Positions 1-17,574 of a stretch of 64,000 bases of DNA are shown piece by piece. The notes beneath the pieces are model-generated. The model did not search any database. It saw only the letters and a list, made by a program, of their open reading frames with translations, and had not been told where the DNA came from. The stretch's first letter is position 1. Each line of letters begins with the position of its first letter. Source of the DNA: Lachnospiraceae bacterium. GTDB lineage: Bacteria; Bacillota; Clostridia; Lachnospirales; Lachnospiraceae. The stretch is from assembly GCA_017473115.1 (NCBI GenBank), contig JAFUNC010000010.1:62001-126000 (forward strand), written 5' to 3'. A program made the translations under genes and the position numbers.

Positions 1-1430
1 TAATGGAGAAGTTGGAACCTGTGTTAAAGAAAGACCGGTTTGGCAAGGTTACATTGGATTTGGAGGCTTTGAAAACGGCGGAAGGTGTTGTTGAATTTGC
101 TTTGCAAATCGGTGAAGCAATACAAACGGCACATTGTAACCGGGTGTTACATCGTGATATTAAATTGGAAAATATATTTTATCATCCGCAAACCGGTAAG
201 TATGTATTGGGAGACTTTGGTATTGCAAAGTTTGTGGAGAATGGTACTGCGGAAACGATGGTATATACCGACGGATACGGAGCACCGGAGATTGAACGTT
301 GCCTGGCAGATCAATACAGTGCTACGGCAGATATTTATTCTTTTGGCGTGACCTTGTATCTTTTATTAAATGAATTATGTTTTCCGGCGTCGGAAGGCTA
401 TCGGGTAAATCCCATACAATATTCACCGGACTTTGTTTTTCCTGCACCGAAAAATGCAGGTGCGGATTTTGCGGGAATTGTCCAGAAGATGTGTTGTTAT
501 GACAGTGAAGACCGTTATGAATCAATGGAGACTGCATTAGCGGATGTGAAAAGGATGATGTCGAGGGAAGAAACTGCCGATGAGAATACCTTTTACCCGG
601 ATTTGGAAACGGAAACCTATAAAGAGAGTATCAAGAAAAACAAAATAAAAAAAGGAACCCGCAAGATACAAAAAACCAGAATGTTCCGCAAAGAAGAAAA
701 GCGGTTGGCGGAGAAAGATTATAGGATCATTTCTGTTGTGTCAGGCATCGGAATTGCTCTTTTGGTGATGTTGCTTATAAAGTCTGTGGGAATGGAAACG
801 AAAAGTGTTACAAGTCCGTTGTTTTGGCTTATGCCGATTGCATTGGCGGTACAGGCATTGTTGGTCAGAATCAAAGAGTTTCAATGGATATTTGGGATAT
901 TGGCGGTAGGATTAACTGTATATTCGGCGATTTCTTTAGGATGCGGTGTCGTCCACGTGGTAGTTTGCCTTGCGATACTTTTGGGGTTACCGCTTGTAAT
1001 GGCGGCAAGTGCCGGCGGAGTGTTTTTGTGGATGCTTTGGGATGTGTACGGAATCATTCCGGAGGTTGCGTCGTTTGAACATTCCAATATCGGATGGATA
1101 CCGGCGGCGCTTTTATTGTTGCTGATAAACGGTTATATCTGGCAGGGATGGTATTACGACAAACGAAGCGACCGTGTTGTGGATTGTTGGGATATCTTAT
1201 ACAGAGCAATCTATCATATTTTACTGTTGGTGGGCATAGTTGTCGGATTATTGCAATTAACAGGTGTGGTGCAGATGCCGGAATGGTGGAACCGTATTCA
1301 TCCCGGTTTGATTGGCCTCGTATTAAAAACGGTTGCAGCCATAGAACCGCTGATTGACGGAATCCGGGCGAAGATAATGCATGCGGAAGATGGGAAAGTG
1401 ATAAACGAAGAGGAAGAAGAGGCAGTGTAA
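1..1430 (+). CDS. Membrane-anchored Ser/Thr protein kinase, 5' end outside the window
   Basis: A Hanks-type Ser/Thr kinase whose N-terminal lobe is cut off by the window edge. The visible part contains the catalytic loop HRDIKLEN, the DFG motif and GAPEIE of the activation segment. A basic linker follows, and about 240 C-terminal residues form several hydrophobic segments, so the kinase domain probably sits in the cytoplasm on a membrane anchor. The ATG at position 3 aligns with an internal Met (residue 135) of the complete paralogue downstream, so about 134 residues, including the glycine loop and ATP-binding lysine, should lie upstream. No PASTA domains are seen. One base separates its stop from the next kinase. 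The substrate is unknown. Confidence 0.9.
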   Translation, partial: MEKLEPVLKKDRFGKVTLDLEALKTAEGVVEFALQIGEAIQTAHCNRVLHRDIKLENIFYHPQTGKYVLGDFGIAKFVENGTAETMVYTDGYGAPEIERCLADQYSATADIYSFGVTLYLLLNELCFPASEGYRVNPIQYSPDFVFPAPKNAGADFAGIVQKMCCYDSEDRYESMETALADVKRMMSREETADENTFYPDLETETYKESIKKNKIKKGTRKIQKTRMFRKEEKRLAEKDYRIISVVSGIGIALLVMLLIKSVGMETKSVTSPLFWLMPIALAVQALLVRIKEFQWIFGILAVGLTVYSAISLGCGVVHVVVCLAILLGLPLVMAASAGGVFLWMLWDVYGIIPEVASFEHSNIGWIPAALLLLLINGYIWQGWYYDKRSDRVVDCWDILYRAIYHILLLVGIVVGLLQLTGVVQMPEWWNRIHPGLIGLVLKTVAAIEPLIDGIRAKIMHAEDGKVINEEEEEAV

Positions 1431-1431
1431 A

Positions 1432-3039
1432 ATGTTTCTATGGTCGAGAAAAGAAATGGAAGATATACTTCTGCAGTTGGAAGAGAGAGGGCAACTTTTC
1501 GAAAGGTGCAGATTTTGCAGAAGGAAAGACGGATTCAGCCTGCTTGGAACCGGTGGTTTTGCGTGTGTGTATGAGGCTGAGAATATCAGGGATTCACGCA
1601 AACGATATGCCCTTAAAGTAATCGGATTCGGTGATAAGTATGTGGAGTCTGACGCATTTCAAAAGTCTGTATCCGCACAAAGGAATATCGGCAGATATCG
1701 TGACAGTATGATTCAAATCTACGATTATAAGGAATTGTGTGTGGAATTGGATCGAAATAATCAGGTGATTTCGATACTGTCTCAAACAGAAAAAAAGCCG
1801 GAGCAAAATTGTCTTACGCTTCAGTTTATCCTTATGGAGAAATGCAGACCGATTCTTGCGTATGATAAAACGGGAAATGCGTATTTGACGTGTCAGGAAT
1901 TGCAAGAGCGGGATGAAAAAGAGATTTTGAAACTTGCTTTTGATATCGGGAAAGCGTTATCTTTGGCACATACTAAAAATGTGATTCACAGGGATGTAAA
2001 ACTCGAAAACATCTTTTATGATGCCGGGAAAAAAGTATATAAACTGGGTGATTTCGGGATTGCCAAAGTGACGGATAACGGTATGGCAAGTACGATGGCG
2101 TACACAAAGGGATACGGCGCACCGGAGATTGTAACCGGTCCGGAGGAGCAGTACGACAATACGGCAGATATTTATTCCTTTGGGATTTTATTATATCTTT
2201 TGTTGAATGATTTGCAATTTCCGGATTCCGATGATTACCATTCCAACACTGCGAGACAATACAGTCAGGGATATGTGTTACCGAAACCACGTTACGGCTC
2301 GGAGAAACTGATTGCAATGGTTATCCGTATGTGCAGATATGAGCCGGAGGAACGTTATCAAAATGCGGACGAATTACTGGATGAACTGGAAGGGTTATAT
2401 TTGGATAGCGGATATCATTATAAAAAGCAGCATCGCAACGGAGCGGTGGCGGTTGGCAGTCTTTTCCTGTTAGCAGGCACGGTCATGTTAAAATTAACGG
2501 TGCATCCGGAATTATCGCTTTCTCCAAGTGTGTGGTTGTATATTATACTGGTCCCGGCATTGTTAAAATGTGTATGGGATATCCGGCGGGAGAGAATGTC
2601 CGGCATTGTTTTGGGGCAGATAGCAGGCGTGGCGGGCGTTATACATATCATGACACTGATTGAAAAATATAACGGCAGTTTACCGCTGTATTCCGGTTAT
2701 GCGTGGTCGGGTCCTGCATTTATTTCCATGGGTGTGATACTGACGTTTCAGGTATTCATTTTAAAAGAGCGGGACAGAAAAGTGATGCCATACTATTTTA
2801 AGGCTAATTTTTATTGGATTTGTATGTTTGCTTTTTATTTGGTATTGATTCTGCATGCATGGACATTTGGTCCGGCGCATGCAAGTATCCTTCGCTTTTT
2901 GCCGATGGGCGAATGGATGTCAGAGATTGCGGTACGTTATGATATTGCTAAAGTGGGAATTGCGGGAGCGATATTTGTGTTGCTGTGGAATGTCAGGGAA
3001 TGGGTGTTGCGTTTTATAAATAAGAAAGCAAACGGTTGA
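1432..3039 (+). CDS. Membrane-anchored Ser/Thr protein kinase (535 aa)
   Basis: A complete Hanks-type kinase. The glycine loop GTGGFACVYEAE is at about residues 39-50, the ATP-binding Lys at 62 (YALKV), the catalytic loop HRDVKLEN at about 186-193 and DFG at 207. After about residue 335 come several hydrophobic segments to the C-terminus. All catalytic residues look intact. It is a tandem paralogue of the kinase immediately upstream and is surely co-transcribed with it. The gene ends just before a terminator-like hairpin, and clpP starts beyond that. Two adjacent kinases with membrane tails but no visible extracellular sensor domain suggest that signals come from partner proteins. That role is inference. 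Confidence 0.93.
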   Translation: MFLWSRKEMEDILLQLEERGQLFERCRFCRRKDGFSLLGTGGFACVYEAENIRDSRKRYALKVIGFGDKYVESDAFQKSVSAQRNIGRYRDSMIQIYDYKELCVELDRNNQVISILSQTEKKPEQNCLTLQFILMEKCRPILAYDKTGNAYLTCQELQERDEKEILKLAFDIGKALSLAHTKNVIHRDVKLENIFYDAGKKVYKLGDFGIAKVTDNGMASTMAYTKGYGAPEIVTGPEEQYDNTADIYSFGILLYLLLNDLQFPDSDDYHSNTARQYSQGYVLPKPRYGSEKLIAMVIRMCRYEPEERYQNADELLDELEGLYLDSGYHYKKQHRNGAVAVGSLFLLAGTVMLKLTVHPELSLSPSVWLYIILVPALLKCVWDIRRERMSGIVLGQIAGVAGVIHIMTLIEKYNGSLPLYSGYAWSGPAFISMGVILTFQVFILKERDRKVMPYYFKANFYWICMFAFYLVLILHAWTFGPAHASILRFLPMGEWMSEIAVRYDIAKVGIAGAIFVLLWNVREWVLRFINKKANG

Positions 3040-3075
3040 ATTACAACAGAATAGCAAAAGATACATTTAAGAGAG

Positions 3076-3124
3076 AACACTTCTTATATCAGAGCAAAAA
3101 CCTGATGTAGGGGGTGTTTTTTTA
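3076..3124 (+). terminator. Rho-independent terminator after the kinase pair
   Basis: An imperfect inverted repeat (AACACttCTtatATCAGG against CCTGATgtAGggGGTGTT) is followed by a run of seven T. It would end the kinase transcript before the clpP promoter. Confidence 0.7.
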
Positions 3125-3196
3125 TTGCGATGGATGCATCGGTGTGTGAACGACATATAATCTGCCGTTTGTTTTTCGGACAGTTAAAATTATGTG

Positions 3197-3240
3197 TAAA
3201 CTTCAATTGAAAAGCAGAAGTTTGATTTGATATAAGATGA
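3197..3240 (+). promoter_or_regulatory. Promoter P1 of clpP with the system-specific upstream box
   Basis: TAAACTT (3197-3203), 4 bases, TGAAAA (3208-3213, within TTGAAA), 17 bases, then TATAAG (3231-3236). The same three blocks with identical spacing recur at 5251 and 11241. Read as sigma-A, the -35 is TTGAAA with an 18-base spacer. The TAAACTT block is then an additional activator or operator site. Confidence 0.65.
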
Positions 3241-3290
3241 AATTACTTCAAGAGACTTAAGAAACGAAAGCATAGAGGGGAGAATGAAAA

Positions 3291-3887
3291 ATGAATAAAA
3301 TATATCAGTCACCGGCAGTGGAAAGAGAGAGCGTAAGCGGCATCAGTACCGTATCCTTAAGCACCAACGCATTTAGCGGAAGGAAAATATATCTGTTCGG
3401 GGAAATCGACGAAGAACTTTTATATATGTTTACCATGCAGATGATGTATCTGATGGAGGATGAAATGTCAGAAATCAATCTTTATATCAACAGCCCGGGC
3501 GGCGAGGTAAATGCGGGGCTTGCCATATATGATTTGATTCAGGCGTGTAAAGCACCGGTGAATATCTACTGCATCGGGATGGCAGCCAGCATGGGAGCCG
3601 TTATTCTTGCAGGAGGACAAAAAGGACGCCGTTTTCTTTTGCCTCACAGCAAGGTGATGATTCATGAGCCATTGATTGCCGGAGGCGTTGGCGGTTCGGC
3701 GTCTTCCGTAAAAAGTACGGCAGAATCCATTTTAAAAACCAAGGAACTGTTAAATGGTCTGCTGGCAAAGCATACGGGAAAAAGTATGGAAGAGATTGAT
3801 AAAGCCACGGATCATGACAATTTTCTGTCGGCAGAAGAGGCTGTGGCATTTGGGTTGTGTGATAAGGTGGTTACCACGCTTATGTAA
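3291..3887 (+). CDS. clpP: ATP-dependent Clp protease proteolytic subunit (accessory ClpP)
   Basis: A serine protease of the ClpP family, 198 aa. The catalytic Ser is at residue 100 in GMAASMGA, the His at 125 in MIHEPL, and the catalytic Asp lies in TDHDNFLSAEEA near 174-176. The SPGGEVNAG oxyanion region is present. ClpP forms a barrel fed by an AAA+ unfoldase, but no clpX or clpA gene lies next to it. The N-terminus (first 30 residues) does not look like a typical housekeeping ClpP, and its neighbours are kinases and a VirD4-like ATPase, so this is probably a second, specialised copy. It is followed after 13 bases by the ATPase gene, with which it should be co-transcribed from P1. Confidence 0.93.
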   Translation: MNKIYQSPAVERESVSGISTVSLSTNAFSGRKIYLFGEIDEELLYMFTMQMMYLMEDEMSEINLYINSPGGEVNAGLAIYDLIQACKAPVNIYCIGMAASMGAVILAGGQKGRRFLLPHSKVMIHEPLIAGGVGGSASSVKSTAESILKTKELLNGLLAKHTGKSMEEIDKATDHDNFLSAEEAVAFGLCDKVVTTLM

Positions 3888-3900
3888 AGGAGGAAATAAG

Positions 3901-5202
3901 ATGAACGAGAATATGAAAAATAAGTACGGCGAAATGCTTTTGCCGGACGGCAGATATTACAGTCTCGATGACAGAGAGACGGGGTTAAATAATAATGTAT
4001 TGGTAGTGGGTACTACAGGGGCTGCTAAGACCAGGACGGTAATTACGCCCAATTTACTGGAATGTGTCGGGAGTTATGTGGTAACTGACCCGAAGGGAAA
4101 TTTGTACCGCCAATGGGGAGAGCATATGCGTGCGCACGGATACCGCGTGGTGCGCGTCAGTTTCATTCATCCTGAAATTTCGGCACATTACAATCCGCTG
4201 GTATATATCAAAAATACGCAACAAATCCAACAGTTGTCAAGTTCGCTGGTATTCAGTGAAAAAGGCAGAGGTTCGGTGGATCCGTTTTGGGATGACAGTT
4301 CATTAATGCTGATCAACAGTTTGATTGCTTATGTAAAAGAAATGATTCCGGAAGAATCCGAAAATCATAATTTTCATTATATTCTGGAACTGTTGCGCAA
4401 TGCCGGAAGAAACAGTACAAGTTCGAAGGTTACTGCCCTTTCCCGCATGATGGATGAACTGGGTTACTACGGTGAAAACAGTTGGGCTTTAAAACAATTC
4501 CGGAATGTTAACCAGGCACCGGAGAAGACGTTTAATACGATTGTGGCAACTTCCATCGCAAAGTTCTGTTCCGTGGATACGGAAGAATTAGCACAAATGA
4601 TGGCATACGATGAAATTGATTTTGCATCCATCGGACAACGTAAAACCGCAGTTTTTGTGGAAGTGTCAGATTCGGACCGCTCCATGGATGCACTGATTAA
4701 TATGTTTTTTACTCAGGCAATGAATCAATTATGTACCTATGCGGATGAAAAGTGCGAAAACAGTCAGTTACCGGTGCCGGTGAGATTTTTTATGGATGAC
4801 TTTGCAACCAACTGTAAAATTGTGAATTTCGAGAATATGATTTCTAACATCCGTTCCCGTAAAATCTCCGTGGTTATGGTGCTGCAGTCTTTGGCACAGT
4901 TGGAAGAAAGTTACGGCAGAAGCGCTCATACCATCGCGGACAATTGTGACACCATGATTTATATGGGCGGAAACGATCCGGAAACCGCAGCATCCATTGC
5001 AGTTCGTTGTAACAAAACCACGCAGACCATCCTTCATATGCCGTTACGCACCAGTTGGATTTTCCGCAGGGGACAAATGCCTTTTATGTGTAAAAACATG
5101 GAATTGAACGATTATTTGAAAGAACGTGGGATTGAGCAGGTGAATCACCCGAAAACAGAGGAAGAGGACAAAGCGTTTGAAATCATAAAAATTGCCGGAT
5201 AA
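3901..5202 (+). CDS. Soluble VirD4/TraG-like ATPase
   Basis: Similar to VirD4/TraG coupling-protein ATPases, which pump DNA or protein substrates. Walker A is GTTGAAKT at residues 37-44, in which the Gly before the invariant Lys is replaced by Ala. The DPKGNLYRQW and YNPLVYI motifs typical of the TraG family follow, and RFFMDDFAT near residue 300 is Walker B-like. At 433 aa it has no N-terminal membrane segments, unlike VirD4. The start is chosen at ATG 3901 because AAAGGAGG lies just upstream at the end of clpP; an in-frame extension to 3754 overlaps clpP and has no support. No relaxase or type IV secretion gene is present, so an ordinary conjugation role is unlikely. Confidence 0.85.
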   Translation: MNENMKNKYGEMLLPDGRYYSLDDRETGLNNNVLVVGTTGAAKTRTVITPNLLECVGSYVVTDPKGNLYRQWGEHMRAHGYRVVRVSFIHPEISAHYNPLVYIKNTQQIQQLSSSLVFSEKGRGSVDPFWDDSSLMLINSLIAYVKEMIPEESENHNFHYILELLRNAGRNSTSSKVTALSRMMDELGYYGENSWALKQFRNVNQAPEKTFNTIVATSIAKFCSVDTEELAQMMAYDEIDFASIGQRKTAVFVEVSDSDRSMDALINMFFTQAMNQLCTYADEKCENSQLPVPVRFFMDDFATNCKIVNFENMISNIRSRKISVVMVLQSLAQLEESYGRSAHTIADNCDTMIYMGGNDPETAASIAVRCNKTTQTILHMPLRTSWIFRRGQMPFMCKNMELNDYLKERGIEQVNHPKTEEEDKAFEIIKIAG

Positions 5203-5208
5203 ATCAAA

Positions 5209-5236
5209 AGGTCGGACTGTTTGAAACGGTCCGACC
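5209..5236. terminator. Hairpin between the VirD4-like gene and the RHH gene
   Basis: GGTCGGAC and GTCCGACC pair around a GTTT/AAAC inner stem, giving an almost perfect 27-base hairpin. On the plus strand there is no T run after it; on the minus strand TTTT follows. It may end the RHH transcript, or act on both strands as a weak terminator. Confidence 0.5.
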
Positions 5237-5250
5237 GAAATTGGAAAGTG

Positions 5251-5292
5251 TAAACTTTGCCTGAAAAACCTATGAACCAAATTGTATAAAAT
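5251..5292 (+). promoter_or_regulatory. Promoter P2 with the system-specific upstream box
   Basis: TAAACTT (5251-5257), 4 bases, TGAAAA (5262-5267), 17 bases, TATAAAAT (5285-5292). The spacing is identical to P1 and P3. It points rightward, so its transcript would run antisense through the RHH gene (5309-5491) before reaching the grpE/dnaK-like operon at 5650. Confidence 0.6.
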
Positions 5293-5308
5293 AGAGACAC
5301 AAGTAATT

Positions 5309-5491
5309 TTAATTCTGTTCGTTTTTGGATTCGGGCATATTGGCAAGGGCATATTCGATGCACTGAATAACTGCCTTGTTAAAAGAGATGTGGCTGGCAT
5401 CTGCTTTTTCGGACAATTCCCGAACCAGAACGGACGGAAGTCTTAAGGTTTTGGATTCATAATCTTTATAGTCTGCTTTTAGTTGAAACAT
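5309..5491 (-). CDS. Small ribbon-helix-helix-type DNA-binding protein
   Basis: A 60-aa protein with the layout of an Arc/MetJ-type ribbon-helix-helix repressor: a short strand (SKTLRLPSVLV) followed by two predicted helices (RELSEKADASHIS and FNKAVIQCIEYALANM). Such proteins bind DNA as dimers. The start is taken at ATG (5' end 5491) with AGGTG 5-9 bases upstream; a four-residue-longer GTG start exists but uses the ribosome binding site itself as coding sequence. It lies between the two halves of the kinase/chaperone locus, divergent from the chaperone operon, so it is a natural candidate to regulate the locus. No antitoxin-type partner toxin is adjacent. Confidence 0.75.
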   Translation of the reverse strand: MFQLKADYKDYESKTLRLPSVLVRELSEKADASHISFNKAVIQCIEYALANMPESKNEQN

Positions 5492-5570
5492 AGAGCACCT
5501 CACTTCTAAATCATAATTTAATTTTACTTGCCACCAAATATAAATCTACAACCAAAATATACGCAAACGT

Positions 5571-5623
5571 AGGTGCAAAATAGGTGCAAAATAATTGCAC
5601 ACGGAAAGAGTATGTGCTAAAAT
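5571..5623 (+). promoter_or_regulatory. Chaperone-operon promoter with two 11-base direct repeats
   Basis: TTGCAC (5595-5600), a 17-base spacer and TAAAAT (5618-5623) form a good sigma-A promoter 27 bases before the grpE-like start codon. Immediately upstream, AGGTGCAAAAT occurs twice head to tail (5571-5581 and 5582-5592), and the -35 region itself reads AATTGCAC. The tandem repeats are candidate binding sites for the divergent RHH protein, since RHH repressors commonly bind tandem short sites. I see neither a CIRCE nor a HrcA-type inverted repeat. Confidence 0.7.
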
Positions 5624-5649
5624 AAATAAAATATAAAGGAGGAAAAACA

Positions 5650-6216
5650 ATGGAAGAATTTACCCAAAATACGGAAGACGTCATTGAGACGGAAACTGTC
5701 GATTGTGAGACGGAGGAATGCACGCAACAGGATGAAATTGAGGAGATTTTGCTGAATACCAGGGAGCAGGGAGAGATGATAGAGAATTTGATTAAGCATC
5801 AAATTGAAGTCAAAGATGAAATGATTGAGAAACTCCACAAAGAACTGGAATATTATAAGCAGGATGCTGCAGAGAAGTTTGTTGACCAGGTTATGAAAGC
5901 AATTATTAAAGTTCGTAAAGACATGGGCAAATTAATTGCATCCGAAAAGTGGAATACAATGACGGCTGAGAATCTTCAGGAAGAATATCGGTATATTTTT
6001 GAAGATTTAACGGATTTGTTGGAACAACAAAACGTTGATGCATTTACAACGGCAGCAGGAGATGGTTTTGACGCATCACTGCATATGGCCAAAATTGAAA
6101 AAACGAAGGATCCTTCCTTAAACAAAACAATCAAAGAAAGCATAAGTGAAGGATACAAAAAGGGTGAAAAAGTGCTTTTGCCCGAACGTGTAATTGTATA
6201 TCAGTATAACGAATAA
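5650..6216 (+). CDS. GrpE-like nucleotide exchange factor
   Basis: 188 aa with the GrpE layout: an acidic N-terminal tail (residues 1-40), a long coiled-coil-like helix (about 40-80), further helices, and a C-terminal beta part ending ISEGYKKGEKVLLPERVIVYQ, which matches the end of GrpE (GYxxGDRVLRPARVxV). GrpE drives ADP release from Hsp70. The central part is divergent from housekeeping GrpE. It is first in the chaperone operon, with a strong AAAGGAGG site, and is followed 23 bases later by the Hsp70 gene. It is probably dedicated to that Hsp70 rather than the general DnaK; the pairing is inferred from adjacency. Confidence 0.8.
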   Translation: MEEFTQNTEDVIETETVDCETEECTQQDEIEEILLNTREQGEMIENLIKHQIEVKDEMIEKLHKELEYYKQDAAEKFVDQVMKAIIKVRKDMGKLIASEKWNTMTAENLQEEYRYIFEDLTDLLEQQNVDAFTTAAGDGFDASLHMAKIEKTKDPSLNKTIKESISEGYKKGEKVLLPERVIVYQYNE

Positions 6217-6239
6217 AACAGAAGAGGAGATTTATTATT

Positions 6240-7895
6240 ATGGGTTATGTATTTGGTATTGATTTAGGAACAACGTATTCTTGTATTGCATACATTGATG
6301 AGTATGGTAAGCCGGTTGTATTAAAAAACAGTGACGGAGATCATACGACCCCGTCGGTAGTGATGGTAGAGTCTGAAAGCAATATTATTGTCGGAACGGA
6401 AGCAAAGCGTTCCATCGAAATTGAGCCGGACAAAACGGTTCAGTTTATTAAACGAAAAATGGGTAAAGAAAATGATCAGGTAACTTTGAACGGAACAACA
6501 TATACCGCACCTGAGGTATCTGCATACATTTTGAAGAAACTTGTGACGGATGCGAATGAAGAATTAAAGCAGACCGGTGTCATCAAGGATGGCGAAGAGG
6601 TAAAAGATGTTGTTATCACTTGCCCTGCATATTTCGGAATGAACGAGAAGCAGGCGACTAAGACAGCCGGTGAACTGGCAGGTTTGAATGTACTAAATAT
6701 TATTAACGAGCCCACCGCGGCTGCAATTTCCTATGGTGTATCCGGAGGAGATAAAAACGAAACCGTATTGGTTTATGACCTTGGAGGCGGTACGTTCGAT
6801 ATCACGGTTATGAATGTAAACGGTGGTAATATTTCCGTTATTTGTACCGGTGGTGATGACCAGTTGGGCGGTAAAGACTGGGACGAAGCATTGATGGACT
6901 ATGTAATGCAGAGATATGAGGAAGAAAACGGTGAAGATTTGTCGGAAGATCCGGAAGCGGTAGCAGCATTGTATGTGGATGTTGAAACATGGAAGAAGTC
7001 GCTTACCTCAAGAGAAAAAGTAAACATGTCCGTAAACGGTCCTGCCGGAAGATTCCGTGAAGAATTGACCCGTGAAAAGTATGAGGAGTTAACAAGCGAT
7101 CTTTTAAACAGAACCAAAAACCTTTTGGAAGATGTTATGGCCGTTGCCACCAAACAAGGATATCCCATGGATAAAATTGACAAAGTATTATTGGTTGGCG
7201 GTTCCTCAAGAATGCCTCAGGTTGCGGCTATGATTGAGAGAGATTATCACGTGACACCGATTTTGGCAGACCCGGACGAAGCAGTTGCCAAGGGTGCAGC
7301 GGTTTATGCAAGTAACGAAAAAGCATATAACGATTTTGTACAGGACGAAGCCGTAAAAGCAGGTAAAACGGTAGAAGAAGTAAAAGAAGAAAATCTCCTT
7401 ACCGGTGAATTGGACAAGAAGTTTGCGATTTCTGCAGGCGGTTCCGCAGGCAGTGCATTGAAACTGAATATTACCAATGTATTGTCCAGAACATACGGCA
7501 TCGTTGCATTGCAGAACGGAAAACCGGTTATTTGTAATATGTTAATGATTAACGATCAGTTGCCGTCTACCAAAACACAGCGCTTCTATACCGCGGAAGA
7601 TAATCAGGATGCGGTTGTCATCAGTGTGTACGAAAGCCGTTCCACGGATGAAGTGATGGAATTGGAAGACCGTGTTGCATTAACGGATATTGATATGCGT
7701 TTTACCAAGAAGGTACCCTTCAATACTGCCGTTGATATGACGATGGCTCTGGATAATGCGGGTATGTTACATATCATTGCGGAAGAACAACAGTATCATT
7801 CCAAATTGGATACTACCTTCCAACTTTCCAATCAGATGACGGATGATGAAATGAACAGTGCAGCCTTAAGAATGTCATCCGCCAAAGTAGAATAG
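6240..7895 (+). CDS. DnaK-like Hsp70 lacking the C-terminal lid
   Basis: The nucleotide-binding domain is well conserved: GIDLGTTYSC at residues 6-15, NEPTAAAISYG, VYDLGGGTFDI and VLLVGGSSRMPQ. A beta-type substrate-binding domain follows from about residue 413, with a QLPSTKTQRFYTAEDNQ segment like that of DnaK. The protein is only 551 aa, against about 610-640 for DnaK, and ends shortly after the beta domain, so the helical lid is absent or reduced to a stub. The region between the two domains is about 55 residues, longer and more charged than the usual short linker. It sits directly after the GrpE-like gene. No trigger factor, hrcA or canonical dnaJ is next to it. Confidence 0.92.
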   Translation: MGYVFGIDLGTTYSCIAYIDEYGKPVVLKNSDGDHTTPSVVMVESESNIIVGTEAKRSIEIEPDKTVQFIKRKMGKENDQVTLNGTTYTAPEVSAYILKKLVTDANEELKQTGVIKDGEEVKDVVITCPAYFGMNEKQATKTAGELAGLNVLNIINEPTAAAISYGVSGGDKNETVLVYDLGGGTFDITVMNVNGGNISVICTGGDDQLGGKDWDEALMDYVMQRYEEENGEDLSEDPEAVAALYVDVETWKKSLTSREKVNMSVNGPAGRFREELTREKYEELTSDLLNRTKNLLEDVMAVATKQGYPMDKIDKVLLVGGSSRMPQVAAMIERDYHVTPILADPDEAVAKGAAVYASNEKAYNDFVQDEAVKAGKTVEEVKEENLLTGELDKKFAISAGGSAGSALKLNITNVLSRTYGIVALQNGKPVICNMLMINDQLPSTKTQRFYTAEDNQDAVVISVYESRSTDEVMELEDRVALTDIDMRFTKKVPFNTAVDMTMALDNAGMLHIIAEEQQYHSKLDTTFQLSNQMTDDEMNSAALRMSSAKVE

Positions 7896-7907
7896 GGGTG
7901 AACAGCG

Positions 7908-8291
7908 ATGGTGATATTCAGCATATTTTGGATTGCAGTATTTTGTTTGATTACATTGCTTCTGAGAATTGTTTTTGAAGTCGTATCTTCTGCCTTATGT
8001 GCTTTGTGGGATGCCGGTTGGATAGTTGCGCTTACAGGAGGAATCTCTACACTTTTCATTCTTACGTTAACACTTATATTTGAAATGTCCGTGGGAGAAA
8101 CCAGTGTGTTTAATGGTGTGTTTTTTATTATTATTATCGCTATCGCCTGTGTGATTGTAACAGCGCTTCTGGTTTTGCTGTGTTTAATCGGTCTGGGGCT
8201 TGGCAAATTATTGGAATATTTCGCTGATTTCTTTCGTAGTGAGTTTGAGAATTGGATTAAGCAATTGACTAAAAAACTGGAGAAGGCCTAG
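7908..8291 (+). CDS. Small membrane protein in the chaperone operon
   Basis: 127 aa with three or four hydrophobic segments (roughly residues 5-25, 32-58, 63-103) and a short charged C-terminus. I recognise no family. It starts 12 bases after the Hsp70 stop and ends 9 bases before the J-like gene, so it is translated as part of the operon. A membrane partner fits the idea that the chaperone works at the membrane together with the large membrane protein downstream. That is inference. Confidence 0.75.
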   Translation: MVIFSIFWIAVFCLITLLLRIVFEVVSSALCALWDAGWIVALTGGISTLFILTLTLIFEMSVGETSVFNGVFFIIIIAIACVIVTALLVLLCLIGLGLGKLLEYFADFFRSEFENWIKQLTKKLEKA

Positions 8292-8300
8292 GAGGAATGT

Positions 8301-10352
8301 ATGGCAGCTGATATACAAGAGATTATTTTAAGTCGCTATGGGATTGATATAGCGAAAGAAAATATTTTTAAATTATATAAAATTGACAAGCCTGATATAA
8401 CACCGCAAGAACTGGATATCAAAATTCAGGATACAAGGAAACGTTGGAATCAGAGTATTAACGGTGCAAATGAAAAAAATGCCATACGTGACAAGGAGCG
8501 TATGGATAAGGCGGATCAGTATGAAGCAATTCTAAAGGATGACAGATTACGTAAGGAATTATTTGCGTATTATAACGGTACCGGCGCCAAAGGCGGAAAA
8601 GAGGGCGGCACCGGCGGAAGCGTTGATTTTGCAAGAGAGTATTTTAAACTGCTGGAAACGTCTAAAAAAATCCGTCAGGATGATGTTAAGTTTTTCTTTG
8701 AGTATTATCAGGCAGAGCGTAAAAACAAAAAAGCCATTCTTGAAATGCTTGAAAAAGAGTTCAAGGTAAAGAAACTGGGGAAAGACGAAAAGTATGCGGA
8801 TGAAGAGGCGGAAAAGGAAGTCGAAGGTAAGACAAAAGATGAATCCAGTTCGTTAATTGTCAATCTGTTTCAGGAAGCAACGATTATGAAGTTGCAAAAA
8901 TGTTTTGCATTTTATGAGAAGGCAGTTGCGAGTAACGATGTATGTCAGAAGTTTCCTGCACTGAAAGCAGGTATGCTTGAGTTCCTTAAAATTGATGAGG
9001 CCAAGGATTGTAAAAGTTATGCCGGGGAGATTGCCGTGATGCAAAAAGATGCTTATGCGGTAAGACAGGAACGAGGCAATGAATACATTCCATTGGTGGA
9101 TTTGTTAAATACGATGCATACACTGTTATCTTATCGTGATGTCGTGGATAACTTTGACGAATTTAAATTGCTGGTTCATTACCCGAATCTGACTCCGTAT
9201 ATGTACAGTTTTACGGAAATGAAGCCGGATACGCTAAAAGGGATTATAAAAGTTGCGAACCGGGAGTATGTGTTCCGTGATGACGCTGATTTTATCGTTA
9301 ATTATTATAATCCGGTTCATGATAACTTCGGTATTACGAACAACGGCATTCGTTCCATTATCAAAAAGGCAGAGAAGAGGGCGAAAGCCAATAAAGTACT
9401 GGACAAAATCGATGAGAAGATTGGTCGGCAACAACTCAGTAAATTGCCGCTTGTTGCAAACTTATTACATTGGATTGCATATTGGCCGATTTTTGTGGTA
9501 TTTCTCGTATTTGAAGTATTTAAAATATTGTTTGAATCATTGAAAAAAACGGTTATACCGGTTACGGCTCTGTTTTTCATAGGATTAAACTGGTTGTTGC
9601 CTAAGTGTACGGAACTGGATAATATGACAGTGCTTTTCAAGATTATCGAAAAAAAAGAGTGGCAGGAGTATTTGCAGTCTTTTAGCGGATATGAGATGAC
9701 GGCAGATTCTCCGTATGTTGTTTTAAGCATTGTTGTTATTCTTATAATGTTACTGATATATGTGGTTCCGTCGGTGTTCGTTTGTATATTTACAAAAAAT
9801 ATGACAAACAAGTTAAGTAAAGAAATCGACTGGAAAGGTTATGAAAGAACACTCCAGGGAATTTTAAAGAATTTGCATGATAAGACAGAAAAACAATTTG
9901 CCGAAAAGAAAAATGCTTTTGTAAAGAATCAGATTATTATGGGCATTTTAAATATTCTGTACGTTGCGGTTATTGTTTTGACAATTATTTTTATACCGAA
10001 GGGATTTCAATGGTTTAGTGAAACGACAGGTTATTTCCAGCCTTCGGAAGAAGTGAGTGAAGTAATTACGAGTGAAGAAAATATCAGTGAAGAATTGTCA
10101 GAAGAAGTATCGGAAGAACCGGAAATTCTTATGGTGATTACGGCAAGTTCGGCCAATATCCGCGCCGGTGTGGGAACAAGTTATGATGTGGTTGCAACCG
10201 GTGTGCAGGGAGAGACTTTTGTGGCTACAGGCAATCAAGAGACTACAAGCAGCGGTAACGTCTGGTATGAAATCTATTTAGATGAAGAAAAGACGAAGAC
10301 CGGATGGGCAAGTCAGAAAGTAATTGAAATTTTGGAACAGGAGGAAGAATAA
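8301..10352 (+). CDS. Membrane protein with degenerate J-like N-terminus and C-terminal SH3b domain
   Basis: 683 aa. Residues 22-92 follow the outline of a J domain: a first helix ending at KLYKI, a TPQELDIKIQDTRKRW helix, a loop, and a last helix ending in KDDRLRKELFAYY, which resembles the DPEKRKEYD end of DnaJ. Where HPD should be, after RKRW, the sequence is NQS (residues 50-52). A charged helical region follows, then three or four membrane segments (about 386-433, 470-497, 545-568), an acidic Ser/Glu linker, and a bacterial SH3 domain (about 610-680, with ANIRAGVGTSYDVV and GWASQKV). Context beside Hsp70 and GrpE supports a J-like assignment. Without HPD it would probably not stimulate ATPase activity normally and may act as a tether. 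Confidence 0.75.
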   Translation: MAADIQEIILSRYGIDIAKENIFKLYKIDKPDITPQELDIKIQDTRKRWNQSINGANEKNAIRDKERMDKADQYEAILKDDRLRKELFAYYNGTGAKGGKEGGTGGSVDFAREYFKLLETSKKIRQDDVKFFFEYYQAERKNKKAILEMLEKEFKVKKLGKDEKYADEEAEKEVEGKTKDESSSLIVNLFQEATIMKLQKCFAFYEKAVASNDVCQKFPALKAGMLEFLKIDEAKDCKSYAGEIAVMQKDAYAVRQERGNEYIPLVDLLNTMHTLLSYRDVVDNFDEFKLLVHYPNLTPYMYSFTEMKPDTLKGIIKVANREYVFRDDADFIVNYYNPVHDNFGITNNGIRSIIKKAEKRAKANKVLDKIDEKIGRQQLSKLPLVANLLHWIAYWPIFVVFLVFEVFKILFESLKKTVIPVTALFFIGLNWLLPKCTELDNMTVLFKIIEKKEWQEYLQSFSGYEMTADSPYVVLSIVVILIMLLIYVVPSVFVCIFTKNMTNKLSKEIDWKGYERTLQGILKNLHDKTEKQFAEKKNAFVKNQIIMGILNILYVAVIVLTIIFIPKGFQWFSETTGYFQPSEEVSEVITSEENISEELSEEVSEEPEILMVITASSANIRAGVGTSYDVVATGVQGETFVATGNQETTSSGNVWYEIYLDEEKTKTGWASQKVIEILEQEEE

Positions 10353-11243
10353 ATGGACAGTTTGGAATTAAGTATGGAAGGATACATAGAGTATGCGCGA
10401 CAGCAACGTATATCCGCCGGAGATGTAAAAGGGGTATTTAAATCGCTTTTTGGTAAGACGGAAATATATACGCAGGAGCAGTTACAGGAAATTGATGCGC
10501 ATCGCAGGGAGATTCTGGAACGATATCGTAATCCGTATGCGATTACCCGTCAGGAAATTGAATGGGCGGCAAATAATTATAAAAATCTGAACGAGCCGCA
10601 AATTATTGATATTCTTACGCGTTATGGAGAGACTGCCATGCGTTCGGCCGACGGTTTGGATTTTAATAGGAATGCAACCTTATTTTCGTTAACCACATTT
10701 CCGGGAGTTATAATCGATTATGAGGATGTTTTTGCGATCGGTCTGGTGAGTAATGTGAAAGTTAACAAAAGAAATACCAGAACGGATACTGTGGTTTGTG
10801 TGATGTTTACCAATGACCCGTATATTCCTGTATTTCCGATTTGGTACAGATATGATTTAAAGTTAAATGAAATGATGTATAGTCAGCAAGCAAGGATTGA
10901 TATTGCGAATGCATATCAGGCAGTGTGCCCGAATCTTACATATCCGATTACGGAAGTTAAGGAGTTGAAGAAAATAATTGCTCAGGAACCGAATATAAAG
11001 GGGAACATCAGTAAGGAACAGATGGAAAAATATCTTACCGATGCAGATTACTGTTCCGGTATTTTTGATACAAGTGAGTACGAATGCTATGTGAATTACA
11101 GCGTGGAGGACCTTCTTGAAAGTTACGGTTATGTGCGCGGTCCGGTTGCTGAGAAAACTCTCGGTATGGGTTCTAAATCGACCAGGGATTTTTGGATGTT
11201 CCATATAGACAATATTTCCAAGCGTGTAAAAGGAAAACAGTAA
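10353..11243 (+). CDS. Unrecognised protein, last gene of the chaperone operon
   Basis: 296 aa, apparently soluble, with no signal peptide or membrane segment. The N-terminal third is helical and charged. The middle (about 105-190) is beta-rich (LFSLTTFPGVIIDYEDVFAIGL, then VVCVMFTNDPYIPVF) and could be a small globular domain. The start codon follows the previous stop directly, with AGGAGG inside the upstream gene, so the two are translationally coupled. It presumably works with the membrane J-like protein. I do not recognise a family. Confidence 0.8.
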   Translation: MDSLELSMEGYIEYARQQRISAGDVKGVFKSLFGKTEIYTQEQLQEIDAHRREILERYRNPYAITRQEIEWAANNYKNLNEPQIIDILTRYGETAMRSADGLDFNRNATLFSLTTFPGVIIDYEDVFAIGLVSNVKVNKRNTRTDTVVCVMFTNDPYIPVFPIWYRYDLKLNEMMYSQQARIDIANAYQAVCPNLTYPITEVKELKKIIAQEPNIKGNISKEQMEKYLTDADYCSGIFDTSEYECYVNYSVEDLLESYGYVRGPVAEKTLGMGSKSTRDFWMFHIDNISKRVKGKQ

Positions 11244-11282
11244 ACTTTGTCTGAAAATGATTTTTGGTATTGATTATACAAT
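11241..11282 (+). promoter_or_regulatory. Promoter P3 with the system-specific upstream box
   Basis: TAAACTT (11241-11247, overlapping the stop codon of the preceding gene), 4 bases, TGAAAA (11252-11257), 17 bases, TATACAAT (11275-11282). It matches P2 in 16 of 17 positions over the first 17 bases and repeats the spacing of P1 and P2. It should drive the gene starting at 11319. Confidence 0.65.
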
Positions 11283-11318
11283 AGGACTTACAACAAGATG
11301 AAACATTGAGGAGGGACT

Positions 11319-11732
11319 ATGGTTGATAAGTCGCTAAAAATGGTAATAAAAGCATTTTTAAAAGAGAAAAAGCAATTTAGAAAAGAAATTATGCATCCGC
11401 GTAAGAATAAAAATTACGAATTGGGTGCAGTGGAAAGGGCTGTTGTACTTGAACTAATCGAACTTGATATGCAGTTGTATAATGATTGGATGCATGAAAG
11501 AGAAGATGTGCAAGGAGGTGTTCCTTGGATAAGGGAATCTTGTATTAACATTAAACTAAGTGAATATATCGGAAAAGAACAATTTTATATTGTTCATAAT
11601 TGGTCTGATGTAAAATTTGGAGACCCGGAAGAGTTTAAAAAGATAGAAACTGAGTATCGTACATACCTTGATACATTCTGCGATGAAAAGATGAAGTATT
11701 ACGCGGAGCAGTCGAAAGAACAATTAAAATAA
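11319..11732 (+). CDS. Hypothetical protein under P3
   Basis: 137 aa, soluble, charged and mostly helical, with no recognised domain. GAGGAGGG lies directly upstream of ATG 11319. The shared promoter architecture is the main reason to group it with the kinase/ClpP/chaperone genes. It is followed by a possible 46-codon gene and then a strong terminator. Confidence 0.75.
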   Translation: MVDKSLKMVIKAFLKEKKQFRKEIMHPRKNKNYELGAVERAVVLELIELDMQLYNDWMHEREDVQGGVPWIRESCINIKLSEYIGKEQFYIVHNWSDVKFGDPEEFKKIETEYRTYLDTFCDEKMKYYAEQSKEQLK

Positions 11733-11766
11733 AAAAGGATGGAGATAATTAAATGCGAGGTATAGC

Positions 11767-11907
11767 GTGGAAAAATTAACACTGCGCAGCAATGACAGGG
11801 ATTACGTGACGGTAGATTTTCAGTCTGTTAAAATGACGGTTACTGTTAGAGATAGTTTGAATGCTGATTTGTATTCTCAAGATATTGGTATAGAATATAA
11901 AGAATAA
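11767..11907 (+). CDS. Possible small protein, 46 aa
   Basis: An open frame from GTG 11767 to TAA 11907 encodes a 46-residue acidic peptide with alternating hydrophobic residues (YVTVDFQSVKMTVTV), suggestive of beta strands. CGAGG lies 7-11 bases before the GTG. An upstream ATG at 11754 opens only an 8-codon peptide that overlaps this start, which could give translational coupling. The strong terminator just beyond the stop supports a transcribed unit. No family is recognised, and it could be non-coding. Confidence 0.4.
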   Translation: MEKLTLRSNDRDYVTVDFQSVKMTVTVRDSLNADLYSQDIGIEYKE

Positions 11908-11933
11908 TCTAAACATTATTGATTTATAGTGAA

Positions 11934-11972
11934 AGCAGGATGACAAATAATGTGTTATCCTGCTTCCTTTTA
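11934..11972 (+). terminator. Rho-independent terminator closing the left locus
   Basis: A perfect 12-base stem (AGCAGGATGACA with TGTTATCCTGCT, allowing one G-T pair) around a 7-base loop, followed by a T-rich stretch. It marks the right end of the kinase/chaperone locus. Confidence 0.85.
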
Positions 11973-15245: not shown

Positions 15246-16211
15246 ATGAGTTTATGGTTAGCGATTTTGTTCCTTGTTATTGGTTTCGCTCTGTTAATTT
15301 GGGGTGCTGATTTCCTGGTAGATGGTGCCAGCAAACTTGCAGACAAAATGAAAATCCCCCAGTTAATCATCGGTCTTACCATTGTAGCCTTTGGTACCAG
15401 TGCACCGGAAGCCGCAGTAAGTATTTCAGCGGGAATTAAGGGCAGTGCTGATTTGGCGGTAAGTAATGTTGTGGGAAGTAATATTTTGAATATTGGTATC
15501 ATTCTTGGCATTTCAGCCTTGATTACTCCCTTAGCAGTACAGAAGTGTACCATCAAATACGAAATTCCGTATGTAATGATTACTTCCGTTTTGTTACTTG
15601 GCCTTGGTATGTTTGACGGCAAACTTGGCTGGATAGACGGTATTATTCTTTGGGTTGGTATGATTCTCTTCCTTGTATACCTTTTGTGGATTGCAAAGAC
15701 CGGTCAAGCGGTGGTGGAAGAGCAGGAGCCGGAGAAGAAAAAGACGCCTGTTATTTGGATGATTGCTAAAGTAATTATTGGCCTTGTTGCAGTTGTATGG
15801 GGTAGTAATTTTGCCGTAGACGGTGCAACTGCCATTGCGACTGCCATTGGCTGGAGTGAACGTTTAATCGGTCTTACCATTGTTGCCCTGGGTACATCAT
15901 TACCGGAACTTGTAACTTCCGTTGTGGCAGCAATTAAGAAGAAAGCCGATATTGCGGTTGGTAATATTGTGGGTAGTAACATTTTCAATATCCTGTTTGT
16001 ATTGGGAACAACTTCATTGATTACACCCGTTATGTATGCGGAAGCATTTATCATTGATAATATCATCGCCTTTGTAATTGCACTTTTATTATTGATTCTT
16101 GTAATCAACAAAAAGAAGGAATTAAAACGCTGGGGCGGTGCGGTGCTTCTTGGATTTTATATCATTTACTTTGTATATCTGATGATTAATCCTTTCGGAT
16201 ACGGAGTATAA
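15246..16211 (+). CDS. Calcium/sodium antiporter, CaCA family (copy 1)
   Basis: 321 aa, with the two inverted CaCA repeats each carrying the alpha motif: GTSAPEAAVS and GTSLPELVTS, each followed by a GNIVGSN-type segment (VSNVVGSNILNI and VGNIVGSNIFNI). These motifs bind the exchanged ions. About 10-11 membrane segments are expected, with a short charged cytoplasmic loop in the middle (EEQEPEKKK). The family exports Ca2+ in exchange for Na+ or K+. It is the first of two adjacent paralogues (next at 16462). Confidence 0.93.
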   Translation: MSLWLAILFLVIGFALLIWGADFLVDGASKLADKMKIPQLIIGLTIVAFGTSAPEAAVSISAGIKGSADLAVSNVVGSNILNIGIILGISALITPLAVQKCTIKYEIPYVMITSVLLLGLGMFDGKLGWIDGIILWVGMILFLVYLLWIAKTGQAVVEEQEPEKKKTPVIWMIAKVIIGLVAVVWGSNFAVDGATAIATAIGWSERLIGLTIVALGTSLPELVTSVVAAIKKKADIAVGNIVGSNIFNILFVLGTTSLITPVMYAEAFIIDNIIAFVIALLLLILVINKKKELKRWGGAVLLGFYIIYFVYLMINPFGYGV

Positions 16212-17430: not shown

Positions 17431-17462
17431 AAATACAGCGCAACAATCGAAAACAAAGAGAT

Positions 17463-17479
17463 TGTCGGAATTTGTCGAT
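17463..17479 (+). promoter_or_regulatory. Possible tandem Spo0A-like boxes
   Basis: TGTCGGA (17463) and TGTCGAT (17473) lie 10 bases apart. They resemble the 0A box TGTCGAA. A similar pair with the same spacing is at 55225. Here they sit upstream of the type III toxin-antitoxin promoter. Confidence 0.3.
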
Positions 17480-17545
17480 GAGTATTGCTTGAAAAAAATT
17501 GTTGAATTGATATAATAACGTTACAACAACGAATGGAGCACCTTG

Positions 17546-17574
17546 TTGACAGTACGTATAAAGTGCTATATACT
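17546..17574 (+). promoter_or_regulatory. Promoter of the type III antitoxin RNA
   Basis: TTGACA (17546-17551), a 17-base spacer and TATACT (17569-17574): a near-perfect sigma-A promoter placed about 24 bases before the first RNA repeat. A second possible promoter (TTGAAA 17489, 16 bases, TATAAT 17511) lies upstream. Confidence 0.8.

What the first reader, a model, noticed from the sequence alone, without database searches (positions are those of the whole stretch)
1..11907. Candidate new system: paired Ser/Thr kinases, extra ClpP, VirD4-like ATPase and a dedicated Hsp70/GrpE/J-like chaperone set
Seen: two membrane kinases, ClpP, a soluble VirD4/TraG-like ATPase, an RHH regulator, a GrpE-like protein, a lid-less Hsp70, a small membrane protein, a membrane J-like/SH3b protein and an unknown, packed in 11.9 kb and closed by a strong terminator. 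Known: Hsp70 and ClpP are usually housekeeping, in hrcA-grpE-dnaK-dnaJ and clp operons, and VirD4 belongs with conjugation genes; none of that context is here. Inference: phosphorylation controls a membrane-localised chaperone/protease machine that may handle or move a specific protein or DNA substrate, possibly in cell-envelope stress, secretion or defence. Part of it may lie left of the window.
Basis: partly seen in the sequence, partly recalled or inferred. Interest (0 to 1): 0.85.

Follow-up and report, generated by a model that had tools for sequence, protein, structure and literature searches.

The report
ClpP–VirD4 gene pair beside kinase-Hsp70 genes
A bacterium related to common gut bacteria carries a cluster of kinases, a spare Hsp70 chaperone and a Clp-type protease gene whose partner is not the usual Clp motor but a cut-down DNA-transfer motor; the same two-gene pair recurs in related bacteria and may be an unrecognised kind of protein-destroying machine.

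Summary
The genes are real and the grouping is mostly right. The locus starts about 2 kb left of the window and consists of three separable modules: (A) HTH–FHA–kinase–kinase; (B) GrpE–lid-less Hsp70–small membrane protein–membrane protein, within 3 kb of A in 11 of 16 loci with B, once in swapped order; (C) ClpP plus a soluble VirD4-like ATPase. The genome also has separate hrcA-grpE-dnaK-dnaJ and clpP-clpX-like genes.

Module C is the surprise. Of 57 short VirD4-like genes examined, 55 have ClpP on the same strand within 900 nt; the other two run off contig ends. None of 54 long, conjugation-type relatives has ClpP in the flank held. The short class forms one side of a tree split (support 0.98) and has DD where all 54 long ones have DE at Walker B. 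The ClpP triad is intact in 38 of 38 pairs aligned. C sits beside A or B in three genomes and is commoner in Hsp70-core genomes (10 of 17 against 35 of 397).

Best reading: a chambered protease driven by a VirD4-class ATPase instead of an AAA+ unfoldase, here under kinase and Hsp70 control. Linkage is shown; the complex is inferred. The 'J-like' domain is not supported. My open-access searches showed no paper on the pair.

The parts
1..1430 (+). Ser/Thr kinase STK1 with C-terminal membrane segments, 3' part (gene starts 436 bases left of the window; HTH and FHA genes lie further left at L007:16024-17031 and 17027-17572)
   Evidence: Pkinase 92 bits on the part, 110.7 on the full 621 aa protein; 5 hydrophobic segments
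1432..3039 (+). Ser/Thr kinase STK2 with C-terminal membrane segments
   Evidence: Pkinase 109.9 bits; 5 hydrophobic segments
3291..3887 (+). ClpP peptidase paired with the VirD4-like ATPase
   Evidence: CLP_protease 200 bits; Ser-His-Asp triad intact
3901..5202 (+). soluble VirD4-like ATPase, DD-type Walker B, 433 aa; Walker A is the atypical GTTGAAKT
   Evidence: T4SS-DNA_transf 167.6 bits, NF045973 325.6 bits, no TM, motifs
5309..5503 (-). small RHH-like protein, 64 aa, sub-threshold HicB/Arc similarity
   Evidence: a 44% relative over 55 aa in L252
5650..6216 (+). GrpE-family nucleotide exchange factor
   Evidence: Pfam GrpE 51.5 bits; a relative in all 16 core loci
6240..7895 (+). lid-less Hsp70
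   Evidence: HSP70 352 bits; R167 equivalent replaced and linker Asp absent
7908..8291 (+). small membrane protein, 127 aa
   Evidence: 3 hydrophobic segments; group of 12 members, window included
8301..10352 (+). membrane protein with conserved N-terminal part and variable, SH3b-like tail
   Evidence: 3 hydrophobic segments; SH3_3 26.8 bits, just under cut-off; alignment A1
10353..11243 (+). unknown 296 aa protein; one relative (33%) between STK2 and GrpE in L048
   Evidence: no Pfam hit
11319..11732 (+). unknown 137 aa protein
   Evidence: no family hit
11933..11965 (+). terminator-like hairpin, 13 pairs
   Evidence: class not enriched over shuffles

Best explanation
The ClpP (3291-3887) and the soluble VirD4-like ATPase (3901-5202) are the two halves of one ATP-dependent chambered protease. 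The VirD4-like protein, a coupling-protein relative without a membrane anchor, would form the hexameric motor that unfolds and feeds substrates into the ClpP barrel, in place of an AAA+ Clp ATPase. In this genome the pair lies inside a two-part control locus: HTH–FHA–kinase–kinase (phospho-Thr signalling at the membrane) and GrpE–lid-less Hsp70–two membrane proteins (a membrane-tethered Hsp70 machine that would capture or present substrates). Shown: gene content, pairing, signature residues, class split, co-occurrence. Inferred: hexamer, docking on ClpP, substrate feeding, kinase control, stress or defence role.
For: Short VirD4-like genes: ClpP on the same strand within 900 nt in 55 of 57, the 2 misses running off contig ends (L141, L228); long conjugation-type: 0 of 54. 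Both flanks held are at least 900 nt in 45 of the 54 long ones. The 57 short fall into 54 clusters at 80% identity and 42 at 60%; the long into 34 and 17. Both gene orders occur. DD at Walker B in 57 of 57 short, DE in 54 of 54 long. One tree edge (support 0.983, D/E column left out) separates 56 short from 54 long. No hydrophobic segment in 56 of 57 short; at least one in 46 of 54 long. ClpP triad intact in 38 of 38; Walker A lysine in 38 of 38 and the arginine at window residue 318 in 36 of 38. ClpP and VirD4 distances correlate (Mantel r 0.70, n=38; highest of 2000 permutations 0.19). Link to the rest: pair beside the kinase module in the window, L076/L221 (G543) and L109/L204 (G691); beside the Hsp70 module in the window and L043. 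Short VirD4 in 10 of 17 genomes (16 with the Hsp70 core, plus that of L054) against 35 of 397 family genomes: Fisher 9.5e-7; 9e-5 without the three genomes in both sets, 5e-4 if one of two near relatives is also dropped. Kinase and Hsp70 modules within 3 kb in 11 of 16 loci, once in swapped order.
Against: No short-class docking motif equivalent to the IGF loop or HbYX was seen among conserved columns or C-termini. The Asp in place of the Walker B Glu could mean slow or no hydrolysis. In 7 of 38 short proteins a Walker A Gly is missing (6 of them the Gly before the Lys), and the window's own copy is one of these (GTTGAAKT). 53 of 57 show no kinase or Hsp70 module in the flanks fetched (some only 2.6-4 kb); only 4 of 40 pair genomes have the Hsp70-module membrane protein and 6 of 40 the HTH. 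Linked genes co-inherit, so the Mantel result alone does not prove contact, and nearest neighbours agree in only 21 of 38. The enrichment is not corrected for phylogeny, and its two searches used different profiles and scoring depth.
Confidence: 0.5

Rival explanations
1. The VirD4-like ATPase acts on DNA (for example incoming or damaged DNA), and ClpP, working with housekeeping ClpX or ClpC, removes its protein partners or tunes its level. The genes are linked functionally but do not form one protease.
For: All 20 short members scanned match the conjugation model NF045973 at E <= 1e-10, and by sequence the solved relatives are the coupling ATPases Cag5 and TrwB. Three pair loci lie within some kilobases of type III-D-like CRISPR-Cas genes.
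Against: No relaxase or conjugation gene was recognised by eye in the neighbour lists printed (not an HMM search). No membrane anchor in 56 of 57. The constant partner is ClpP rather than a nuclease.
Confidence: 0.25
2. Decoy against conjugation: a membrane-free, weakened coupling protein mixes into or blocks the coupling hexamers of invading integrative elements, and its ClpP destroys the trapped parts.
For: Relationship to CD1115-type VirD4; DD instead of DE in 57 of 57; atypical Walker A in 7 of 38, the window copy included; patchy distribution.
Against: Walker A Gly and Lys positions are kept in 31 of 38. The class is very divergent (27-74% identity to the window copy among 19 others), more than a decoy of one target would suggest. 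It also occurs in other families of the phylum.
Confidence: 0.15
3. The cluster is a chance pile-up or a remnant of an integrative element.
For: The same-genus genome G120 lacks the Hsp70-module membrane protein and shows none of the locus in the stretch that looks colinear (partly by eye); patchy distribution.
Against: Same genes together in separate loci, including a swapped order; 55 of 57 against 0 of 54 pairing; flanking genes differ between loci.
Confidence: 0.03

Closest known systems
Clp proteases (ClpXP, ClpAP, ClpCP)
   Same: ClpP fold with intact Ser-His-Asp triad; motor-plus-peptidase logic
   Different: the linked ATPase is VirD4-class, not AAA+. ClpP position 82 (aromatic in the genome's own ClpP and in the solved ClpPs aligned) is Ala, Gly, Ser or Leu in 30 of 34 paired ClpPs with a residue there (numbering and pocket role recalled)
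VirD4/TraG type IV coupling proteins, CD1115 family (NF045973)
   Same: ATPase core; the window copy is above the model cut-off (325.6 against 250 bits)
   Different: no membrane anchor, DD not DE, ClpP partner, no recognised conjugation genes beside it
TepA–FtsK neighbours (ClpP-like protein next to FtsK/SpoIIIE)
   Same: a ClpP-fold protein beside a related DNA-pump ATPase, in this very genome (C2; the name TepA is recalled)
   Different: FtsK has the 4TM, alpha and gamma domains; the TepA-like protein is only 24% identical to the window ClpP
GAP1-N2 GTPase-centred conflict systems, HSP70/GrpE theme (Kaur et al. 2020, PMC7159879; section 29 and passages read)
   Same: HSP70, GrpE, sometimes a second HSP70 (as in L053), membrane proteins with SH3, kinases in a third theme
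   Different: no GAP1-N2, GTPase or FNIII hit among the 13 locus proteins scanned; the paper's main text has no occurrence of ClpP
DnaK–DnaJ–GrpE chaperone machine
   Same: Hsp70 nucleotide-binding domain (44% to the genome's DnaK) and GrpE
   Different: no lid, DnaJ-contact Arg replaced, linker Asp absent, no J domain found in the operon
MADS defence system (mad6 kinase, mad8)
   Same: STK2 matches PADLOC mad6 (133 bits) and the VirD4-like protein mad8 weakly (26 bits)
   Different: far below the NCBIfam cut-off for MAD6 (79 against 460 bits); no other mad gene among the hits shown (kinase lists cut at 25)

Membership tests
ClpP peptidase | ClpP domain over cut-off with Ser-His-Asp triad | tested here: met
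   200.4 bits; triad 38 of 38
Clp protease (ATP-dependent) | partner ATPase is an AAA+ Clp ATPase | tested here: inconclusive
   linked ATPase is VirD4-class; the genome's ClpX-like ATPase could still serve it
Type IV coupling protein (VirD4) | VirD4/TraG ATPase core | tested here: met
Type IV coupling protein (VirD4) | N-terminal membrane anchor | tested here: not met
   0 hydrophobic segments in the window copy and in 56 of 57 of the class, by a simple hydropathy scan; the scan also misses it in 8 of 54 long ones
Type IV coupling protein (VirD4) | Walker B Asp-Glu | tested here: not met
   DD in 57 of 57, against DE in 54 of 54 long relatives
Type IV coupling protein (VirD4) | conjugation or secretion genes nearby | tested here: inconclusive
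   none recognised in neighbour lists by eye or in the proteins scanned; not searched gene by gene with HMMs
DnaK-type Hsp70 machine | Hsp70 nucleotide-binding domain plus GrpE | tested here: met
DnaK-type Hsp70 machine | alpha-helical lid | tested here: not met
   138 residues after linker, DnaK 262
DnaK-type Hsp70 machine | J-contact residues: NBD Arg (R167) and linker Asp (D393) | tested here: not met
   Arg replaced by Asn or Asp in 13 of 13; no Asp in the linker segment in 13 of 13; role of residues from PMC7289447 passages
J-domain protein | J domain with HPD | tested here: not met
   no HPD in the members aligned; hhalign probability 0.7% and 0.2%, each against one sequence; no DnaJ hit in Pfam for 12 members
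GAP1-N2 conflict system | GAP1-N2 and GTPase components | tested here: not met
   no such Pfam hit among the 13 locus proteins scanned
MADS defence system | mad6 at curated cut-off plus other mad genes | tested here: not met
   79 against 460 bits; only a weak mad8 match besides
New ClpP–VirD4 protease | the two proteins form one complex that degrades protein with ATP | not testable with these tools
   structure prediction off; needs biochemistry

The most novel reading that the evidence does not exclude
A whole class of ATP-dependent chambered proteases exists in Bacillota in which the unfolding motor is not an AAA+ protein but a soluble VirD4 (FtsK-HerA clan) ATPase with a fixed Asp-Asp Walker B; it matches, and is probably annotated under, a conjugation model, and it is plugged into different upstream sensors: kinase–Hsp70 loci, MoxR-like–DUF2201 cassettes and type III-D-like CRISPR loci.
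Probability: 0.4. Interest if true: 0.93.

Novelty: new variant of a known kind. Interest (0 to 1): 0.77.

Why it matters
As far as I know (recall), the ATP-dependent unfoldases that feed compartment proteases are AAA+; the non-AAA+ activators named in PMC5515868 (passages) are nucleotide-independent (PafE/Bpa). A VirD4-class motor on ClpP would mean that protein unfolding for degradation evolved a second time from a DNA/protein pump, and would bear on how coupling proteins handle protein substrates. It also shows that genes matching the NCBIfam model 'VirD4-like conjugal transfer protein' (20 of 20 short ones scanned, E <= 1e-10; the curated cut-off was seen only for the window copy, which passes it) can have a fixed ClpP partner, so the name is probably wrong for this class. 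The accompanying Hsp70, which lacks the J-contact residues in all 13 members aligned, is a natural test of how an Hsp70 works without a J protein.

Tried and rejected
Profile comparisons gave no support. They are weak tests, since the hhalign partners were single sequences; only the Hsp70 half (R167, linker) is kept.

Terminator between kinase 2 and ClpP: noted by eye while reading; the scan did not find it, so it is not claimed.

Whole-set-as-one-system: rejected. Of 40 genomes with a ClpP–VirD4-class gene, the HTH is in 6 and the Hsp70-module membrane protein in 4.

Viral origin: scans of viral contigs found one short VirD4-like gene with ClpP (L165) and one distant VirD4 (L166); six contigs (L167-L172) encode Hsp70s 31-54% identical to the family, not examined further; none was found to encode the membrane protein.

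ClpP pocket: of eight recalled docking positions, 62, 90 and 114 stay hydrophobic in nearly all of 38, position 82 does not. Suggestive only; one canonical sequence was the yardstick.

Rows dropped: L054 (partial Hsp70, no GrpE or membrane protein found) and L055 (29% Bacteroidaceae relative) are left out of the 16 core loci; L054's genome is in the 17. From the Mantel set L132 and L138 (truncated) were dropped, L134 was added by hand, L141 had no ClpP. L241, L246 and L248 (distant or truncated VirD4 rows) were not put in the 54. In one search at most 4 candidates per genome were scored and the list is cut, so 39 short genes in 35 of 397 genomes is a lower bound. My short/long classes were set from match coverage, score and length before the Walker B check, but the first profile (A6) came from four ClpP-adjacent genes. 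G561 and G698 are the same genome, counted once among the 57. In L250 two ATPase genes share one ClpP.

Papers: searches; of the larger result sets (18, 3496, 1348 and 78 papers) only the first 15, 10, 12 and 8 listings were seen. Passages were read of PMC7159879 (plus its section 29), PMC12419801, PMC7289447 and PMC5515868; the rest were seen as listings.


Full report
WHERE IT LIES. The window is G000:C9:62001-126000 of a 2.23 Mb, 85% complete genome. The 15 closest Hsp70 loci are in records named Lachnospiraceae or other Clostridia. Reading left (L007): the operon begins with an HTH_3 protein and an FHA protein, then STK1, whose 3' part opens the window. Left of that lie a small RHH-type antitoxin-like gene, then spoIIAA-spoIIAB-sigF, a TPR protein, folC and valS (mostly named by eye).

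THE OBSERVATION. HMM scans confirm kinases, ClpP, VirD4-like ATPase, GrpE and Hsp70, and find an SH3_3 tail just under its cut-off. The Hsp70 is not DnaK by the curated model (350 bits against 822), is 44% identical to the genome's DnaK over the nucleotide-binding domain, and has 138 residues after the linker against 262. A hrcA-grpE-dnaK-dnaJ cluster lies on C11 (named by sequence, size and order; dnaK by HMM). Four ClpP-family genes exist: the best-scoring one beside a ClpX-like ATPase (by eye), the window one, one on C18 and a TepA-like one beside FtsK.

THE HSP70 HALF. Sixteen loci hold GrpE, Hsp70 and the membrane protein together: the window, L040-L053 and L058 (the membrane protein is cut by the contig end in L042 and L044 and split in L051; L041 and L050 are near relatives). 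In 11 of these 16 the HTH–FHA–kinase–kinase module lies within 3 kb, with none to a few genes between; in L058 (G068) the two modules are in swapped order. In L043 and L047 the HTH lies elsewhere in the genome; in the genomes of L049, L052 and L053 it was not found (completeness unknown). The membrane protein is rare: its body was found in 2 of 200 genomes of the family (23 further genomes match only in the SH3 tail) and in 2 of 392 of the order, own genome included in both; a complete same-genus genome (G120) lacks it. The Hsp70 is strongly conserved (58-83% to the window copy). In all 13 aligned members the Arg that DnaK uses to respond to J domains (R167) is Asn or Asp, and no Asp stands in the linker segment; PMC7289447 (passages) names R167 and D393 as residues in the interaction network that the HPD Asp of the J domain perturbs. 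The membrane protein's N-terminus has no HPD and no profile similarity to J domains. Thus this Hsp70 probably does not take the normal J signal; what replaces it is unknown. Downstream genes vary: a CHAT protease in L053, a protein with a sub-threshold DnaJ match in L045.

THE ClpP–VirD4 PAIR. A second ClpP in this genome (C18) also has a VirD4-like gene directly beside it. In G543 (the genome of L043) there are two more pairs: one beside GrpE–Hsp70 (L043), one in ClpP–VirD4–HTH–FHA–STK1–STK2 order (L076, L221). In G691 the order is HTH–FHA–STK1–STK2–XRE-like–ClpP–VirD4 (L109, L204), with no match to the Hsp70-module membrane protein in the genome. A profile of four of these ATPases (A6) was run over 397 family genomes. 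The listed matches split into full-length short ones (39 in 35 genomes, a lower bound) and long conjugation-type ones matched only in the core. A wider profile (A8, 20 rows) in 398 phylum genomes found short ones in 5 genomes, own included. All 39, and the 5 non-own ones, were fetched as far as contigs allow, with 20 long ones as controls, plus 25 long loci and 8.

COUNTS; short 57, DD 57, ClpP on the same strand within 900 nt 55; misses L141 and L228 both run off a contig end. Long 54 (one of them the second VirD4 gene in L117), DE 54, ClpP 0; both flanks are at least 900 nt in 45 of these 54. Redundancy: 54 short and 34 long clusters at 80% identity, 42 and 17 at 60%. ClpP first in most; L113, L117, L075, L137 and L138 have the ATPase first; L250 has ATPase–ClpP–ATPase; with the D/E column removed, one edge of a FastTree tree (support 0.983) separates 56 short from 54 long; of 38 pairs aligned, triad intact in 38; Walker A Gly positions kept in 31, and the window copy is among the 7 that depart (GTTGAAKT). 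ClpP and ATPase distances correlate (r 0.70; none of 2000 permutations reached it), while nearest neighbours agree in only 21 of 38. For one copy in each of five two-pair genomes the nearest relative of ATPase and ClpP is the same locus, so pairs tend to travel as units.

CONTEXTS. Besides kinases and Hsp70: L120, L140 and L142 lie within some kilobases of type III-D-like CRISPR-Cas genes (Cas10d, Cas5 and Cas6 in L120, Cas7 in L140, Cas5 in L142); L251 holds two tandem cassettes of an AAA_5 (MoxR-like by eye) protein, an unknown, a DUF2201 metallopeptidase/VWA-like protein, ClpP and VirD4 (first cassette by Pfam, second by eye); L115 has another protein kinase next to the pair; small XRE-like regulators (by eye) form a cluster in 8 of the 40 loci compared. 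The other pairs seem to stand among ordinary genes (by eye, which printed 19 of those loci). In 17 genomes searched (16 with the Hsp70 core, plus L054's), 10 carry a short VirD4, against 35 of 397. Three genomes are in both sets; without them Fisher gives 9e-5, and 5e-4 after dropping one of two near relatives. This ties the pair to the Hsp70 half beyond the few physically linked loci, though relatedness is not modelled.

MECHANISM. Coupling proteins are hexameric pumps for DNA and protein (recalled; the solved relatives by sequence are Cag5, 8dol, and TrwB). A soluble relative that is regularly encoded with an active-site-intact ClpP is most simply the motor of a ClpP protease. The kinases and FHA protein would report a membrane or envelope signal; the membrane-bound Hsp70/GrpE set would hold or present clients; the protease would destroy them. 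Only the gene evidence is shown. Against it: no docking motif was recognised, the Walker B Asp-Asp is of unknown effect, the window copy's Walker A is atypical, and 53 of 57 show neither other module nearby. Hence 0.5 for the mechanism, higher for the claim that the two proteins act together.

NOVELTY. Literature searches in an open-access library listed no paper that by title or abstract treats a ClpP–VirD4 pair; the two papers that came nearest by terms were checked by passages. Subscription papers and preprints are not held. The nearest described systems are the GAP1-N2 conflict systems with HSP70/GrpE (PMC7159879, section 29), whose defining GTPase parts were not found here. I file it as a new variant of ATP-dependent chambered protease, with the categorically new reading kept as the novel case.

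Noticed in passing
L120, L140, L142: ClpP–VirD4 pairs near type III-D-like CRISPR-Cas genes; L140 and L142 also have a large WYL-domain protein beside the pair.
   Followed up: partly
L251:412-18697: Two tandem copies of a cassette: AAA_5 protein, unknown, DUF2201 metallopeptidase/VWA-like, ClpP, VirD4-like (second copy by eye).
   Followed up: partly
L256:4361-9672, L250, L007:12219-13836: In G558 a ClpP–VirD4 pair lies just downstream of spoIIAA-spoIIAB-sigF, with a GH25 lysozyme-like gene between; G550 looks the same at its contig end, and the window locus also lies downstream of sigF, so the place may be shared.
   Followed up: partly
L053:8242-17697: Two adjacent Hsp70 genes after GrpE, then the small and large membrane proteins and a 1142 aa CHAT protease.
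   Followed up: partly
L250:6280-9966: One ClpP between two VirD4-like genes in G550.
   Followed up: no
L114, L118, L043 upstream of ClpP: A recurring 273-298 aa protein upstream of ClpP in three loci; the L118 member has no Pfam match; possible adaptor.
   Followed up: partly
L078:2317-5901: TepA-like ClpP-fold protein next to FtsK/SpoIIIE, another ClpP-fold and DNA-pump neighbour pair in the same genome.
   Followed up: partly
L040:953-2122 and L046:5918-7105: Lipoprotein-like proteins near the locus that fall in the same BLAST cluster as the membrane protein family.
   Followed up: no
L007:15061-15740: RHH antitoxin-like gene followed by a RelE/ParE-like reading frame left of the HTH gene; by eye only.
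   Followed up: no
window 15246-16211 and L060:4462-5430: Two adjacent closely similar Na+/Ca2+-exchanger-like genes, a tandem duplication by eye.
   Followed up: no
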